64,000 bases of DNA from Cavenderia fasciculata (Eukaryota > Evosea > Eumycetozoa > Acytosteliales > Cavenderiaceae), in contig NW_004457723.1 in NCBI RefSeq assembly GCF_000203815.1, positions 744,001 through 808,000 on the forward strand, read 5' to 3'. This document shows positions 33,864 through 63,978 of this stretch, piece by piece. How positions within the stretch are numbered: position 1 is the stretch's first letter; each line of letters begins with the position of its first letter. The notes under the pieces were generated by a model that was not told the origin of the DNA, did not search any database, and was given only the letters and a program-made list of their open reading frames with translations. A program made the position numbers and the translations under genes.

Positions 33864-34717
33864 ATGCGATCATCAATCTATGGAACTGGTCGATCAAGCA
33901 CACCTGAAGCAACCATGATCAAAAGAGTTGTAAAGTCGGTCGGTGGTTCAAGTGTCTCAGCTAAAGGTGTTGCTGTTCTCGTTAGTATGATTCGGTATGT
34001 AATAATAATAATAATAATACACATCTCTATCTCTCTAGACATATTACATTACATGATTCTTATTCTTCTTCTTCTTTTTATTGACCTTTTTGTTTTATTA
34101 CTATAGTCATGTTTTTGTTGAGATTACATTGATGACATCAACCTTTAAGGAAAGAGCACCCAAACAAACTCTTACAGCTAGAGACATCCAATTTGCAGTT
34201 AGACTTGTACTCGGAGGTACTGAATTGGCCAAACATGCCATCGTACAAGGTATGGCTGCTGTCCAAAGGGGTATGTAGTACAAATCATATTAATATATAA
34301 TATATAATTAATTAACTGTGTCTTTACTTTAAAGGATCAACCCAAGGACCAATGATTAAAGTTTCATATGTCAAGAGATGTCTAAAGAGTAGTATGCTTT
34401 ATGCTAGAATGGGTAGAGGTACACCCATCTATTTGGCAGCTGTCCTTGAATACATCCTTGCAGAGGTACTTGAACTCTCTTTAAATGTTGCCAGAGAACA
34501 GAAAAAGACAATCATTGCTCCAAATCACATTAGAACCGCCATTCAAAACGACAATGAACTCTTTGGTTTGTTTGATAAGGTTATCATTGCTGGTGCTGGT
34601 GCTGTTAGTCATATGCCACTCAATGGTAGAGACCATTTTGTTTCATCCCATCCTTCTATTCCTCCACCAAATGATCCATCAGACTCTTTTAGCAAACTTT
34701 CTATTCAAAACTATTAA
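33864..34717 (+). CDS. Histone H2B-H2A doublet (fused histone folds), 3 exons, 225 aa
   Basis: Exons 33864-33994, 34107-34270 and 34335-34717 are in phase. The first fold (~18-98) is H2B: IKRVVKSVGGSSVSAKGVAV, TARDIQFAVRLVLGGTELAKHA and GMAAVQRG. The second (~105-200) is H2A: GRGTPIYLAAVLEYILAEVL, ELSLNVAREQKKTIIAPNHI and AIQNDNELFGLF. Acidic-patch positions of H2A are mostly kept (LEY, AE, LEL, ND-EL), with one Glu changed to Asn. The Lys-rich H2B tail is missing and a 25-residue Pro/Ser tail ends the protein. The second intron sits exactly between the two folds. Such a chain could replace an H2A-H2B dimer in a variant nucleosome (inference). Confidence 0.92.
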
Positions 34718-42799: not shown

Positions 42800-45700
42800 A
42801 TGTCTCACGAAACTATTAGCAACAGTAGTTTGGTCACCGAGTCCTCTTCTTCTTCCTCAACTCCTCCTCCTCCTCCTCCTCCTCCTCTTGCATGTGGTGA
42901 TACAACAACAACGACAAAGCAGCAGCAGCATGAACAACAACAACAACAACAAGATATAGATTCAACATCCACTACGACCAATATTGCAGAAACAGTAGTA
43001 GTATTAGTAGTAGATGAAGCGGAAAAATCAAATGGCACCAAATCAGGTCAAGAAGGTGAACAGGTAACAACCCCTTCAGCATCACCATCTACCTCTACCT
43101 CTACCACCATTGATAAACCAACCTTGACAACTTCAACGACCACCACCATGATCGTTGATGAACCAGAAACAAAAATGATTATTGAATCAACCTCGGCAAC
43201 CTCGACAACTTCAACATCAACATCAACATCGACAACCTCAACAATGACTACTACCATGATTGTTGAAGAAGAGGAAGAAGAACCAACCTCTACATCAACA
43301 ACTTCAACAACAACAACAACCAATGACAATAGTAATAATAACAATAATATTAGTAATAATAATAACAATAATAATATTAATAATAATAATAATAATAATA
43401 GTAATAATATTCAAACACCATTACAAGGATCTTCACACAAAAGAGATAGAGAAATTGAAAATGATAATAATGGATTTAGTTTTATATTTCATGTTGGACC
43501 AAAAGTGAAACCAGACAAGACTCAAAAGAAACAAAAGAGAGATAGTCTGTTATCATTGTCCACCACGGTTTTGGCAACTCCGACACCCGCCACCAACAAA
43601 AAGAATCCAGCTTACAATCTATTGGCATCACGACAAGCACATCAACCTCGAACTCAATCATTGTCTAGTAAAAGACAAAACCAAGTGACAGACGCAAATG
43701 TTGGTGCAATGGCAGATCAACTTGGTGAGATTGGTGGAACTGACTTTTTCATCTCTTTGTTTAGTGGATCGACAAACTGCTCAAAATTACTCAAAGATTG
43801 TTTCAGAGTATCTTCTACCAATGTACCAACAACTCCTTTTGGATCAATGGATAATATTAGTATTGGTAAATCATACGACTCTCTTCATCTTGATAATGAT
43901 TATTATGATCAAGATGGATTCCATTTACAAAATGGTGGTGGTGTTGGTGGTGGTAGTGATGATGAGTTTGAAGATAAACCACTCACAACATCAACAACAT
44001 CAACAACAACCAACAATCATTATGGTCTTCAAAGATTTGAATCAATTATTGCAGAAGAAGATGAATCCTCTAGTGATGAAGAAAAGAGTTATATTAAAAG
44101 TTTAAAAGAAAGAAAGAATTTAGAAGAATCTGAAAAAGGTTTTAATAGAGTAATAAGAGAGAAAATTGAACAAGTAAATATGAATGGAAAAAAAGAGAGA
44201 GACAATGATTAGAGAGAGTATTAATATCATTTAATTTAATTTATTCTAGGCACATGTAAATAGATTGTTTTTCGAACCAAATAGAAAAAGGGTACCGGTT
44301 AAAGACCAACAATTACAAGATTTTTTGGAACAAAATATTTTTACACAAACTCCCATTCCAAGGGGGTTCAACGAGGGTGATTGTACCGACGGACCATACG
44401 ACACGCTCTTTTACACCATCCATCCACTGCGACTGATGGGTGAGAGTGTGGACGGCCTGATGAAAAAGAATGCAGAGGATGTGATCAAGGACGGTGTGCC
44501 AACTCCCACCTACAAAGAGGTGCAACCATACGTTCCCTACAACATTAATATTAGCAGACGATTTCAAACTGCCTATAACCAAGGTTACATTGTTTACAAT
44601 GGTACCAACAATACATTGGCTTCTTCATTATCATCCATGACTCCTGCCAAACAACAATCACCACCACTACCAAATGTAAAAGGTGGCTCAGTTATCTCTT
44701 CTCCACCATCTACACCTTTGACATTATCTTCCAGCAACAACAATAATGTAAACAGTGCATTATCACTAGTACATCAATCATCGTATCCTTGGAAACGTGT
44801 ATCAGAGATGTTTAATACAATTACATGGTTGCCCGAAGAAACAGCGATGCTATGTGAACTATACTTTATCTATGGTTCAGATTGGTCAGAGATTTCAAGG
44901 ATATTGAGTGGTTCCAAATCACCTCTTCAAATCTATCAAGCCATCACCAAACAAAAAGATTTGATGTCGATGAAACCACATACCACCTTGGCTCAAGACC
45001 TAGAAGAAATCAAAAAGCAATGTGTCATTTGTTTCCTTTCAACCAGCGGTGGAAACAAAAAATTCTATCATCAAAAGACTAAAAAGAATCAGAATACAAC
45101 TCTAGTCACTTGTTTTGCATGTGAACGTTCATTTCATCAAGATTGTATTACTGATCAACCAAATAGTAATAACAACAATTCAGAATGGTATTGTTCAATT
45201 GATTGTTCAATGACTTGTCAAGTTGTAAGTAGAATTATATATATATATATATATATATTAAATCATCAATCACAATCAATATATTAACCATTATAATTTT
45301 GATTTATTTATTTATTTGTAGAGATGTAATGTTTGTCAAAAAGGGGATCATGAAGATTCATTTGTATTATGTGACAAGTGTTCAGATGGTTATCATATTT
45401 ATTGTTTATCACCACAACTTTCAGAGGTTCCTTATGATCCTTGGGAATGTTCAAATTGTTGTGAAAACAACAATACCTCTAAAAGTATAGGTAAAATTGT
45501 GGAATCACCTTCTCCTCTTACTGCTGCAGTAGAAGATACTTTGTCACCAATGAACTTGGAAGATGTACCAAAATTAGAAAGAGTTTCTAAAGATGCATCA
45601 CCAAACGGTACAACAACAGAATCAGTAGCTGCAGAGGGTAACCATTCATTAATTAATTCACCTAGATCAAAAGAGGAAACTAACGGTCATAATGATAGTA

Positions 45701-48700
45701 GTAGTAGTACTACGACTGCTACTGTAGTTGTAGTTGTTGATACTTTGAATCAATCAAATACAACAACACCTATTATGGAACCAACAACTATGATGGTTGT
45801 TACATCAACTGCAACTACAACATCAACATGTCAAGCAATGGCACCAATTCCAACAACTCCATCATTATCAGAGGCTAGTACACCGGCAATGATTAAAACA
45901 CCACTTGCTTTGGGTTTGAAAAAGTCTACTGCAAATGCACCAATGTCTCCTGCAGCACCACCAGCATTATCATTGGGTTTACAAGTATATCAACATCCAA
46001 AACTCCATTTCCAACACATCAAGGGGTGTCAGAATGCATCAGACAGCTCATCAGCAGACAACAATACTACCGCACACAAGGACAATGGTGGAGAGGAATA
46101 CAGTTCATCATTTGCAAGAGTACTTGGAAAGGAAGGAACAAGATTGGCAAGCTCTGCCACGTCCAAGCCATTCCATACACTCAAAGCTATCAGTTCAGTG
46201 TGTTTGGCGTGTCTGACGTCGGTTAGTATCTTTGATGATTCAGATTATAGTCTTGGCAATACAGAGATTACCAATTACAAGGATATGATATCATCGGAAG
46301 ACATTGGAGAAGATGACTATGAGCTTGAAGCAGTTATGGCTAAAAAGTTTGATTTCATTTTGGCTGCCATCCCAATTGCCGTTCAAAAAATGATCGATGA
46401 ACCACTTCTTATGGGTTCTGAATTACAACAACAACAACAACATCAACAACAGGAATCAAACAACTCTTTGTTGAGTGCATTTGTAGCTGCTTCCTCATCC
46501 TCTTCACCACAGACAACAAACGAGAACGATACTATTGTATCATTGGCAGGATCAAAACGAAAGAGAAAACAAAAATTACAAGATTTACAAGACCTTCCAG
46601 ATGTACAAGTTAAAATTCAATTGGATGATCAAATAACACCACCTACCATTACCAATACATCACATGATGAACAAATTGATACTACTATGGATAATAATAA
46701 TAATAGCGCATTAAAAGAATCACAAGAATTTTCCACTCAATCTGCCATTGATATATTGTCAACACATATGGAAACTGAATCACCAATACAACCATTACAA
46801 CCATTACAACTCAACTCTTCAGGAACTCTGGAGGGATCAAAAATACTTTTACAAATGGCCAATGGCGACCATGAACAAAATGGGTTGGAATCACCATCTA
46901 CACCACCACCTATTACTACTTCTACTACTACTATGACGCATACAACACCACCACCAACTATACCAACTTCACCACTCATTCCATCATCCATTTTAAATGC
47001 AGACAATATTATTCAAAAGACGACTGGATTGGCTCAATCTACCATTGTTGCACCACCACCCAGTCTGCCATTGTCGATCACTCCGCCAATGGTACCAGCT
47101 ATTCCTCAGCTAGTGACAGCGTCTGAAGTGCCTGTTGGCGTCGCACCCACGTACGATTATGGTGCTTCGGCCATCGCATTGCAACAACAGATGCTCGCCA
47201 GACAGCAGTATTCGATGATGGTCGAGGGAGGTGTTATACCGCCAACCGATCCAACCGCAACCAATCTTGTAAATTTACCAACTTATATCCAGCAACCACA
47301 ACTTTTATCCAGTCTTAATAATACGCCAATAGCCAATAGTACCATTATCACTACCACCATGACTACACCCTCTAAACCAACCAAACGAAACACCCGAAAA
47401 GCCAAAATACCAGCTACTGAAAAGCCACCTCAACCCACCTCACCCGCCACCTTCACCACCTCGACTCGAACCATTGTTCAAGCCAACCCACCCTCCGAAG
47501 ACACTTCGCCACCAACCTCGTCGCGCAAAAAGAAGCGGTCGACCATCAGCGAGACGATCGGTATTGCCCGAGGTCGCCGCAGCAGGCTGACCGACGGCAT
47601 GGCCGGCTCGGCGCGTTGGTGGATCTTCTCTGGTAATCCCAAGAACCGTCCCGAGCTCAACGCAATGCAAGAGGGTAAGCAGCTCGAATGGGGCGTACGT
47701 CAACACGCCGACAATATCCGCAAGAACGATCTAATCTACGTGTGGTTGTGCGGAAAGTACGCGGGTATCTCTGCCACGGCCATCGCACTCGAAGACCCCG
47801 TGCGTGTCGATGCGCCGTCTGGAGACGCTGTCTTTGTCCCTTCTTCCAAACCCAACTTGATCCACAATGTTCAAATCCAGATCACCAAGATCTTACCCAA
47901 CATCCTTCCCAAAAAGACAATGGCAGAGAACAAATTATTGTCACGAATGACCATTATCCGTGCACCACTTGCCACCAACTTTTGGGTGACTGATGAAGAA
48001 TCTGAAATGTTGTCAACAATGGTCAGTCAATTGGAAAAGGGTGAGTTGGATACTTTAATCGTTCCCAATCCATCAGCTTCATCTTTTAACAATAATAATA
48101 ATAATAATAATGGAGATGATTCAAATGATGATGATTCTATATCAACTACTAGTACTACTAGTACGACTACTACTACCACCTCTTCTTCATCTACTTCAAT
48201 AGTATCATACTCTTCTACCAAAAGAGGAGGAAAGCATCAACAAAATGATCAAGATGATGCAGATGATGAAGATGATAGTGATGATGACGATGATGATATG
48301 GCTATTGTGACACCTTCCAAACCAAGATCCAAAGCATCTGCCAAATCCAAACCAAAAGCTGCTCGTGGCAAGAAAGCAGCAGCCAAACCAATGCACAAAT
48401 GTACAATGTGTGATGAACAACAAACAGTCTCTAAACATTTCTTTAGTTGTGATTCATGTGGTCGTTATTACCACAATCATTGTTTGTCTGATCCAGTTGA
48501 TAAATCACTTTATTCTTATTGGATTTGTTATTTATGTTGTATGACTGAACAACAAGTATGTAGAAAATCAAAATCAAAAAAGAGGAAAGGAATCAAATGA
48601 ATATTAATTTATTTTTAATTTTTTTATTTAGATTATCAATTGTAAATTAGTTATTGGATGGTTAGAATTAAGAAGCAAGTGTAGAAAGATATTACATGAC

Positions 48701-59784: not shown

Positions 59785-62696
59785 ATGATACTCAATAATA
59801 TTAATTCAGTTGAACAACTGAGAGCATCAGGAAATAAAGTATGTTATATTGTATTATACTCTATAGAGTAGAGTCTGCCCTCATATAATATATTACTTAG
59901 GCACTGATATTTTCTTCTTGCTCGTTTGTCTTAGAAATACAGTGAAAAAAGATATATAGAAGCAATCGATATCTATAAACAAGCTATTGAATTATCAAGA
60001 GATGCAACATTTCCATCAAACATGTCTGCATGTTGTTTTGAATTGGGTCGTTATGAAGATGCATTAGAGTTGTCTAAAAAGGTGATAGACATGATTAAAG
60101 TGCAAGGAGAAGATCCCAAACAACTTGCTAAAAAGAATCTAGCACATATTGCAAGAATTGTACATTTAAAGAAATCAAAGGAAGAATTGGTACAATTGGT
60201 CAATCAATTCACAGACAGCGATCTTCAAGACAAATCATTTGATTTTGAAAAGATCAAGAAATCGGTTGATACTTTAGTTCAAGAAGATTGGACTAAAAAG
60301 AATGGTTCTGGTAATGTCGATGCCTCTACTTTGCCAGTTCGTTTGCCATCAAGATTACCAAATGTGAACGAATACTTTGTTGTCGGTCATGACATTCCAA
60401 AAAGTGCATTGAGTCCACACATCGATGGAGACAGAGTCGACTCATATGAAAACGATCCAATCATCACCCCTCGAATCAAAGAGATTGAATCCAAATGTAT
60501 CCGTTTACGTGATAATCCATCATTATCATTCTTCTACGGTGGTATTGGAGATTGCCGTAATGCATTTGTCACACTCGCCGATTTGAATCGTCAACTCCTA
60601 GACAGTCCCATCTCACCAAAGACCAAGATTCACTTTACGCTCAACGATCATATATCTTCTACCATTGCTAGAGATATATTACTCTTCTCATTATTGGAAG
60701 AGATTGGAAGATATGAATCGATTGAAAAGGTGTATAAAGAAAGAGAAGCAGCCAACGCAGCAGTCATTCTCTACTATACCTATATTGGTATCGGTATGCC
60801 AGAGGCTATATACAAGATGTTGATAGCTAGATTCCACAAGCTCATTGCACTTGGGGACAAGGGTCAACTCCCCAAATGGATGTCAATCGAAACTGCCGAT
60901 TGGCCAGGTATCAGAGATGCATTCGAGTATTGGACCACTGCAGAACCACTGACATGGGCAGAAGTAAAAAAGAAAGCAGGTGTGGACTTTACCGTACCCA
61001 CCACGAAAGAATCTACTGGGAAGCCATTCCAACAGATGGAAGAATTAAACAAACAATTTAGCAACCCAGAGTTTCTAAAGAAGTATGGTATTGACGTAAA
61101 CGATGAAGCTAAAAAGAAGATGTTAATGGAGTGTTTTACAGAAGCTGACATGTCAAAGACACTGGACGACGATGAAACCTCGTTGATGCGTTTGCCTGGA
61201 GAAATCCTCTGGACTCATGGCTATAGATACCCTCTGCTCCCCATGGTCAATGCCGACTATGACGAGCACATGACACCTGCCAAGGCACATCAGTGCATGC
61301 GAACATTGCGTGGCAAGTCTAAACAAAAAAGCAATGATTTTAATCAAGAGGAATCAGAGCTTATGAAAAGCTTTGCCAAAGCTGACAAGATCAAGGTCAA
61401 TCCAACCTTTTTCGATTCCGTATCAGCCAACTAAAAGGTGATATGACATCAGAGTTGTCCTTTAAACCAATGAATGTTGTGGCACAATTCTATCAATATA
61501 TATGGATGGGTAATCCAAAGCTCAAAAAGACATCGTTTGACTATTTTATTTATGCATTTTATCAAACTGCACGTGCTATAGTCAGATTGTCATCGAGCGA
61601 TGCATTGACCATTGAAATGCGTGTTGGTGATTTTCAATCAGTTTTGGACAATGTACGTGACAACAAGGAAGAAAGAAAGGCTCGTGGAATGGCTGTTGAA
61701 TACGATAGTATTGACCTTAGCAACGTACCTGATTACACTGGATTCTTGAATGAATTTTCAGAATCGATTGAAATGTTAAAACCAGTCAAACATTCATACA
61801 TTGGATTCAGTGTTTTTCTCAACGTTGTAGTTTGGAAATCACTCAACGATGTCATCCACTCTTATCTCCTCGTGCCAGGTGAAAACGCATTACCAAGATA
61901 CTTGGGTGTCAAATCGGTCGGTGAAGATGATTTGTGGGAAGGCTTCCGATTCTCTCGAATTGAAGGACCCATCCCATTGGATCAATTACTCGGTCGTGAT
62001 GAATTAATTGCTTGGCTGTCTAGATTATTCGTCACTATTGTCACTCCATCGGCTGTCGAACCTGGTACATTCCCTATTCACAGTCCCAACAATATAACAA
62101 TGTTTTTCAAACTCCTTGGTCGTCTGCTTCGTATTGGATACCCAACACATTGGATCACTGGTGTAGTCGAATTATTATTAAGTGGATCATTAACAACTGT
62201 TGAACCAACTCGTAAAAACAGAATGATACCTCTATCTCGTGTAGCTCCTCCTCTTTTAAAAATGTTATCAATCACACCATGGTTGATTGAAATTCGTACA
62301 CAAGCTGCATTGTGGATGGACAAGTATCAAATTAGATTGTTGGCAGGAAGTATAATTCCTAGTGTGTCTGATATCAAGAGATATGATATTTCAATCAGAG
62401 GAACTAGGTCATACTCTGGTCCACCATTCTCATCGGTCATCATGATGGCCATTGAATATCCATCCAATCAAATCTTCTCGCCTTCAAACGGTGCAGACGA
62501 TAACCTTAGATTCCAACTTCTTGATGCAACTCGCAACAAAACAACCATTATCACAACCATCTTGTTTGATGGAAAGACAGTATCATTTTGGATGTCTGAA
62601 ACAGATTATAACAATCTATTGTCTCAAAATGTCACCATTAAACTATTTAGAAATGATACTTGGAAACCATTTACTGAACCTAAAAGTTTACAATAA
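59785..62696 (+). CDS. TPR and DUF4470-domain protein, 2 exons, apparent frameshift at 61428-61445
   Basis: Exons 59785-59838 and 59935-62696. The first exon ends EQLRASGNK, also found in the partial copy downstream. Splicing gives TPR-like helices (YSEKRYIEAIDIYKQAIELS, LGRYEDALELSKKVI). DUF4470 follows at ~190-300 (FFYGGIGDCRNAFVTLADLN, LNDHISSTIARDILL). DUF4470 is often next to MYND fingers, but none is seen here. The frame ends at TAA (61432-61434), and the same protein continues from 61443 in another frame to 62696 (TSELSFKPMNVVAQF ... LFRNDTWKPF). One base seems to be missing; no intron fits the gap. It is either an assembly error or a recently broken gene. Biochemical role unknown. Confidence 0.72.
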
Positions 62697-62850: not shown

Positions 62851-63978
62851 ATGTCAAGCAGCGGTAGTAGTAATAATTCAATCGAACAACTGAGAGCATC
62901 AGGAAATAAAGTATGTATTATACTTGAATATAATAGCTAGCGATTACTTACTCCTCCTTAATTACAATTGGTCAATCAATTCACAGACAATGATCTTCAA
63001 GACAAATCATTTGATTTTGAAAAGATTAAGAAATCGGTTGATACTTTGGCTCAAGAAGATTGGACTAAAAAGAATGGTTCTGGAAAGGTGAATGCATTGA
63101 CATTACCAAGTCTTATGCCATCAAGATTATCAAATGTAAACGAATACTATGTTGTTGGTCACGACACTCCAAAAAGTGCAATGAGTCCACATGTTGATGG
63201 AGCCGAAGTCAGACCAAACGAAAACGATCCATTGATTATCCCAAGATTAAAAGAGATTGAATCTCAACGTATCCGTTTACGTGACAATCCATCATTATCT
63301 GATTAGCAGTATTGGATAGTGTACGTGACAACAGGGATGAAAGAAAGGCTAGAGGAATGATTTGATTGGATGGATATTCAATGGCCATCATAATGACCGA
63401 TGAGAATACTGAACCAGAGTGTGACAGAGTTCCCGTGATTGAATCTGTGAGTTTGTTTATTTTTATATCGTATCTCTTGATGGCCGCAGCACTAGGTACA
63501 TTAGCACCCAACAATCTAATTTGATACTTGTCCATCCACAATGCAGCTTGTGTACGAATTTCAACCATCCATGGTGTGATTGATAACTTTTTAAATACAG
63601 GAGCGACACGAGAAACTGGCATGATTCTCTTTTTAGGTGTTGGTTCGACAGTTGTTAATGATCCTGTGAGCAGCAACTCGACCATACCAGAGATCCAAGG
63701 AACTAGGTACAATCCCCATCAACAGTCCAAGCAATATAGCAATGTTTTTCAAACTCCTTGGTCGTCTGCTTCGTGTTGGATACAGGTGGCTTAGATTCCA
63801 TCTTCTCGACCCAGCTCGCAACCAAGTTACCATTCTCACTACCATCTTTTTTGATGGAAAAAATGCATCTTTTTGGATGTCTGAATCTGATTATATCATA
63901 CTTTCATCTCTAAATGCAACTATCAGATTATTTAGAAGTGATTCTTGGAAACCATTTAGTCAAGCTCAAAATTTTTAA
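62851..63978 (+). pseudogene. Rearranged partial copy of the TPR-DUF4470 gene
   Basis: Starts with ATG and a first exon (62851-62910) ending EQLRASGNK before a GTATGT, like the gene upstream. It then jumps to LVNQFTDNDLQDKSFDF (62970 on), so the TPR part is missing. After NPSLSD and a stop it jumps again to VLDSVRDNRDERKARG. A segment at about 63360-63710 is homologous to the parent but lies on the minus strand. The + strand resumes with SPSNIAMFFKLLGRLLRVGY and finishes LFRSDSWKPF. Several deletions and one inverted displaced block make it non-functional. Sequence similarity to the parent is high, so the duplication is fairly recent. Confidence 0.85.

What the first reader, a model, noticed from the sequence alone, without database searches (positions are those of the whole stretch)
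33864..34717. Histone H2B-H2A doublet with an intron exactly at the fold boundary
One spliced gene encodes an H2B fold followed by an H2A fold with a linker of only about ten residues. The order matches the H2B-H2A doublets of Marseillevirus-type giant viruses. Here the gene is clearly cellular: three exons and a dictyostelid leader. The second intron (34271-34334) separates the two folds, as expected if neighbouring H2B and H2A genes were joined. The H2A acidic patch is mostly kept, and the H2B Lys-rich tail is gone. I recall that a D. discoideum H2B variant entry may hold both folds, but cannot verify it.
Basis: partly seen in the sequence, partly recalled or inferred. Interest (0 to 1): 0.82.

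Follow-up and report, generated by a model that had tools for sequence, protein, structure and literature searches.

The report
Slime-mould single-chain H2B–H2A histone family
A social amoeba carries a gene in which two histones that normally work as separate partners, H2B and H2A, are joined in one chain; relatives of it occur elsewhere in its genome and in other social amoebae, and in one case the joined pair is fused to a DNA-repair enzyme, although recent papers say that fused histones have not been confirmed in cells with a nucleus.

Summary

It is not alone. Acytostelium has two such doublets, Heterostelium one, and an environmental protein a further one. The C. fasciculata genome holds four more readable copies and three that look broken. 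In one, the doublet runs through an acidic stretch, within one exon, into the repair enzyme PNKP. Nine family members form one group (96/97). A viral origin is disfavoured, not excluded.

The fold-boundary intron is real, but two copies lack it, so it need not be a fusion scar. H2A Arg29 is replaced in 9 of 9 members, Arg77 in 6 of 7 readable ones. I propose a pre-paired H2A-H2B dimer that docks on chromatin and grips DNA weakly. No RNA or protein evidence was available.

The parts
33864..33994 (+). exon 1: short N-terminus, H2B alpha1 and first part of alpha2
   Evidence: spliced frame identical to DFA_07149
33995..34106 (+). intron 1, phase 2 in codon 44, inside H2B alpha2; an intron of this phase at the matching place is in all five readable C. 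fasciculata copies
34107..34270 (+). exon 2: rest of H2B alpha2, alpha3 and alphaC (residues 83-98)
34222..34263 (+). 42-nt tract coding ELAKHAIVQGMAAV in H2B alphaC; 39 of 42 bases as in host singlet H2B L004
34271..34334 (+). intron 2, phase 1 in codon 99, at the fold boundary; if kept in the RNA, an in-frame TAG at 34276-34278 would end an H2B-only product
34335..34717 (+). exon 3: linker, H2A fold (alpha1 108-117, alpha2 127-153, alpha3 161-170), remnant of the docking segment, C-terminal tail and TAA stop

Best explanation
The gene encodes a true H2B-H2A doublet histone: one chain that folds on itself into what is normally an H2A-H2B dimer. It belongs to a family present in at least three dictyostelid genera (shown, at the level of sequence). 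The family most likely arose by fusion of dictyostelid-type H2B and H2A and then diverged fast (inferred; trees favour but do not prove it). Most likely mechanism (inferred): the pre-paired unit is handled by H2A-H2B chaperones and docks on H3-H4 or on nucleosomes in place of an ordinary dimer. Because two DNA-gripping arginines of H2A and the basic tails are gone, such particles would be looser, while most of the acidic patch stays readable in the window copy. In copy E the same unit sits at the N-terminus of PNKP, where another PNKP of this genome has a weakly matched SAP-like region. There it would tether a break-repair enzyme to chromatin, which is the best hint that the unit is a chromatin-docking module.
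For: Sequence and fold of both halves. Doublets in Acytostelium and Heterostelium; P0016 of Acytostelium is predicted with the helix pattern of two histone folds (pLDDT 80.5). Linker read as protein: P0016, P0018 and P0019 share linker elements (an Asn-Gly stretch, a Pro-Pro pair, then PSYV), and in 7 of 9 family members (all but the window copy and P0018) there is no Met between alphaC and the start of H2A alpha1, so H2A could not start separately. One group: 94/92 for H2B halves, 94/94 for H2A halves, 99/97 joined for five members, 96/97 for nine. Adding the host's own singlets gives the next larger group, 91/92, not starred. PNKP fusion: PF00125 with two stretches, PNK3P E 2.5e-48, no Met from 144 to 319. 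A 39/42-base tract shared with host H2B (33.9 expected, P 0.005) suggests exchange with a host gene.
Against: No transcript, protein or localisation data. H2A docking segment altered; H2B Y83 and E76 (contacts to H4, recalled) changed, though Y83 is also changed in the host's singlet H2B. H2B E105 of the acidic patch is kept in 5 of 9 members and lost in E, F, A and G. Copies A and G are barely or not seen by Pfam, so some members may have left chromatin. Three copies look broken. Net charge is +12 against +33 for host H2B plus H2A.X, so DNA wrapping may be weak or absent. In the H2B-half tree all 22 doublets lie together against singlets, though without support (41/0).
Confidence: 0.55

Rival explanations
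1. The doublet is a histone-fold scaffold that no longer works in nucleosomes, like the tandem histone domain of the Ras activator Son of Sevenless; it serves protein-protein contacts.
Confidence: 0.3
2. The doublet was taken up from a giant virus of the Marseillevirus type and kept.
Against: Nearest group in the joined trees is the host's own singlets (86/68; 91/92; not starred); H2A R77 is kept in 17 of 17 other doublets but replaced in 6 of 7 here; spliceosomal introns. Two viral-contig scans confirmed no relative, but they found no doublet of any kind, so they carry little weight.
Confidence: 0.1
3. Annotation artefact: two adjacent histone genes wrongly spliced together, as Talbert and others found in animals (passage).
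For: Reading into intron 2 gives a plausible H2B end (QRGM then TAG), and Met105 could start an H2A.
Against: Only 64 bp separate the folds; an H2A from Met105 would lack its N-terminal tail; 7 of 9 members lack a Met between alphaC and H2A alpha1; linker elements shared by P0016, P0018, P0019; copies A and G join the folds inside one exon.
Confidence: 0.03
4. A decaying, non-functional copy.
For: Copies B, C, D look broken and the family turns over fast.
Against: The window copy has an intact frame, normal codon bias and intact splice sites.
Confidence: 0.07

Closest known systems
H2B-H2A doublets of Marseilleviridae and other giant viruses
   Same: Two full folds in one chain, H2B first; reduced tails
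   Different: Cellular gene with introns; lacks VLKQVHPD in H2B and FPVGR in H2A, which many of the comparison doublets keep; not shown to share an origin
Dictyostelid singlet H2B and H2A.X
   Same: Dictyostelid-type alphaC (HAIVQGM) in the window copy and P0016; H2A-type rather than H2A.Z-type match
   Different: Fused, no long Lys-rich tail, R29 and R77 of H2A lost
Histone domain of Son of Sevenless (SOS)
   Same: Tandem histone folds in one eukaryotic protein, same overall shape
   Different: About 21% identity; part of a Ras regulator; no other SOS domain here
Engineered single-chain H2B-H2A used in structural biology
   Same: Same fold, order and a short linker
   Different: Man-made

Membership tests
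Core histones H2B and H2A | Histone fold plus H2B alphaC | tested here: met
   Pfam and AlphaFold model; H2A half alone is 1.7 bits under the Pfam cut-off
Core histones H2B and H2A | DNA-contacting H2A Arg29 and Arg77 (roles recalled) | tested here: not met
   Tyr and Ile in the window copy; so it is filed as a divergent doublet, not as a canonical H2A or H2B
Core histones H2B and H2A | Incorporation into nucleosomes | not testable with these tools
   needs an experiment
H2B-H2A doublets (architecture) | Both folds in one coding chain, H2B first | tested here: met
   no RNA evidence
Viral H2B-H2A doublets (lineage) | Common descent with viral doublets | tested here: inconclusive
   not favoured in the joined trees, not rejected; 15 of the 17 comparison doublets come from sources listed only as lgn, jgi, ena or tara and are not proven viral
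H2A.Z | H2A.Z-type sequence | tested here: not met
   better match to host H2A.X-like gene (5.1e-16) than to host H2A.Z-like gene (8.8e-11)
SOS histone domain | followed by DH-PH and RasGEF domains | tested here: not met
   225-aa chain; Pfam lists only histone-fold families for it

The most novel reading that the evidence does not exclude
Social amoebae use H2B-H2A doublets as working chromatin proteins: a pre-paired dimer that makes open nucleosomes, and, fused to PNKP, carries a DNA-break repair enzyme into chromatin as a built-in histone dimer.
Probability: 0.35. Interest if true: 0.92.

Novelty: new variant of a known kind. Interest (0 to 1): 0.82.

Why it matters
[quoted passage not shown] The 2024 trees left out Dictyostelium among fast-evolving taxa (passage). 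A conserved dictyostelid family would speak against a strict ratchet and make it testable in amoebae for which editing is reported (PMC13046832, search listing only). A histone dimer fused to PNKP would be a new way to bring a repair enzyme to chromatin.

Tried and rejected
Two scans of viral contigs confirmed no relative; as no doublet of any kind was found, they say little. The C3 hit (L017) shows no histone-like frame and is taken as chance. A deep root of the family stayed unresolved: holding it with dictyostelid singlet H2B is not rejected (p-AU 0.51; 0.29 without alphaC). A P0045 search was meant to show a viral doublet among solved chains; none is in its 60 listed rows. D. discoideum doublets: none named, and those searches are not exhaustive. 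Papers: Hsu 2012 is not held; Stevense 2011 is known to me only from a reference list.

Searches for prior mention, rows listed of papers found: 20 of 99, 20 of 198, 9 of 9, 2 of 2, 13 of 13, 8 of 8, 10 of 1,959. No listed title or abstract start describes this family; this covers one open library and mostly listings. Passages were read in PMC9145170, PMC5333086, PMC3380720, PMC11222145, PMC8094536, PMC11827605, PMC10919886 and PMC5087659; no whole paper was read.

Rows left out: of the doublet-like proteins whose sequence I read, P0024, P0025, P0046 and P0057 were not put in the trees (truncated or of odd build); 17 others were. Several hits were not read. P0018 and P0030 have disturbed H2A halves; they stay in the trees but are not counted for R77 (P0018 reads V and R, depending on the alignment).

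Full report

Family in other species. A search with the H2B half found an Acytostelium subglobosum protein, P0016, alike over both folds (37% over 212 residues). A two-row profile then found a second Acytostelium copy, P0018, a Heterostelium album copy, P0030, and an environmental protein, P0019, of unknown organism. P0018 is disturbed in the H2A half, and P0030 seems to hold an unspliced intron there (my reading). AlphaFold2 gives P0016 the helix pattern of two histone folds.

Family in this genome. Pfam's histone model found 11 places, of which one (L011) is the doublet. By eye, the others are three H3 genes, two H2B genes, one H2A.X-like gene (ends SQTY), one H2A.Z-like gene and three NF-Y-like frames. 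Searching with the doublet itself revealed more. Reading them: A on C15 (205 aa, readable), B and C beside it (frame breaks), D on C2 (stops), E on C2 (682 aa, readable), F on C2 (readable doublet, 246 aa), G on C20 (223 aa, readable). So I count five readable copies with the window's, and three that look broken; stops inside B, C and D are also listed. Counts from this tool are lower bounds.

Fusion to PNKP. In E the last H2A exon runs without a stop into an acidic stretch (42 Asp or Glu of 67 residues) and then into the PNKP phosphatase domain (PNK3P E 2.5e-48) and a kinase-type domain (AAA_33 1.4e-16). There is no Met between residues 143 and 320, and 320 lies in the phosphatase motif, so PNKP could hardly start by itself. 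F lies upstream of a second, very similar PNKP copy, but its frame is one base out of phase with it at an A-run; I cannot say whether that is real or an assembly error, and did not mend it. A third PNKP, on C7, has a weak SAP-like N-terminus (SAP E 0.0098, 16 bits against a cut-off of 23.9) and no histone match.

Introns. All five readable copies have a phase-2 intron in H2B alpha2. Intron 2, at the fold boundary (phase 1), is in the window copy, E and F, not in A or G. A phase-0 intron in H2A loop 2 is in E, F, A and G, and missing from the window copy. The Heterostelium model goes astray at about that place. Shared introns support common descent of the copies and remove the need to read intron 2 as a fusion scar.

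Trees. Five family members are one side of a branch in the H2B tree (94/92), the H2A tree (94/94) and the joined tree (99/97); nine in the joined tree with the paralogues (96/97). In the first joined tree Cavenderia lies outside Acytostelium plus Heterostelium, which I recall as the species order. The next larger group adds the host's singlets (86/68; 91/92). Against this reading: the H2B tree puts all 22 doublets together against singlets (41/0), and holding all doublets together is not rejected elsewhere (p-AU 0.14, H2A; 0.20, joined; 0.21, with paralogues). A and G are very long branches and their place is unsure.

An alphaC puzzle. The window copy and P0016 have the alphaC of dictyostelid H2B (HAIVQGM), P0019 and P0030 the general one (HAVSEG). 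In the window copy, 42 bases coding this helix match host H2B L004 in 39 places (L005 in 36), where codon usage predicts 33.9 (P 0.005 for 39), while identical residues elsewhere in the H2B half match L004 in 39 of 57 bases. I read this as a small gene conversion; it is one uncorrected test. Without alphaC the H2B tree no longer joins Cavenderia with Acytostelium, but joins it with Heterostelium (88/61), so the tree neither proves nor disproves it.

Residues. H2A Arg29 is replaced in 9 of 9 family members (Lys in P0030) and kept in 13 of 17 other doublets; Arg77 is replaced in 6 of 7 readable family rows (G keeps it) and kept in 17 of 17 others. H2A E56, E61 and E64 are all kept in 7 of 9 members (not A, G); H2B E105 in 5 of 9. 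H2B K120 is Arg in the window copy.

Mechanism. Shown: one coding frame, two folds, a family, a fusion to PNKP. Inferred: chromatin docking, looser DNA grip, repair tethering in E. I put 0.55 on a chromatin-docking dimer and 0.30 on a non-nucleosomal scaffold.

Literature. A review and a research paper state that eukaryotic histone fusions are unconfirmed or unobserved (PMC9145170, PMC11222145; passages read). PMC10919886 discusses archaeal, bacterial and viral doublets (passages). PMC5333086 calls H2Bv3 the principal H2B variant of vegetative Dictyostelium (passages). No listed row of searches describes this family.

Noticed in passing
P0031 (Pelomyxa schiedti, 284 aa), P0002, P0033: H2B fused to an H2A.Z-like half; in the H2A tree these three group with the Cavenderia H2A.Z-like gene (99/97). 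Whether the Pelomyxa one is cellular or viral is open.
   Followed up: partly
P0022 (EukProt transcript, 285 aa), P0024, P0026: H2B-H2A doublets with phenylalanine-glycine-rich repeats, in the tail or between the folds; organism unknown to me.
   Followed up: no
window 34271-34278: If intron 2 is retained, a TAG two codons after alphaC would give an H2B-only protein of 100 residues; possible alternative product.
   Followed up: no
L016, C7 PNKP: PNKP with a weak SAP-like N-terminus and a long acidic region; on C2 a histone doublet stands there instead (copy E).
   Followed up: partly
window 45322-48600: Open frame with two PHD-finger stretches and an EVE domain.
   Followed up: partly
window 61386-62696 (+) and 63236-63718 (-): Two open frames on opposite strands that look very similar by eye and have no Pfam match at E 0.01: perhaps an inverted duplicated pair.
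   Followed up: partly
window 34700-34714: The doublet ends SIQNY and P0019 ends PIQSF, where the host H2A.X-like gene ends GSQTY: reminiscent of the SQ motif without its serine.
   Followed up: no
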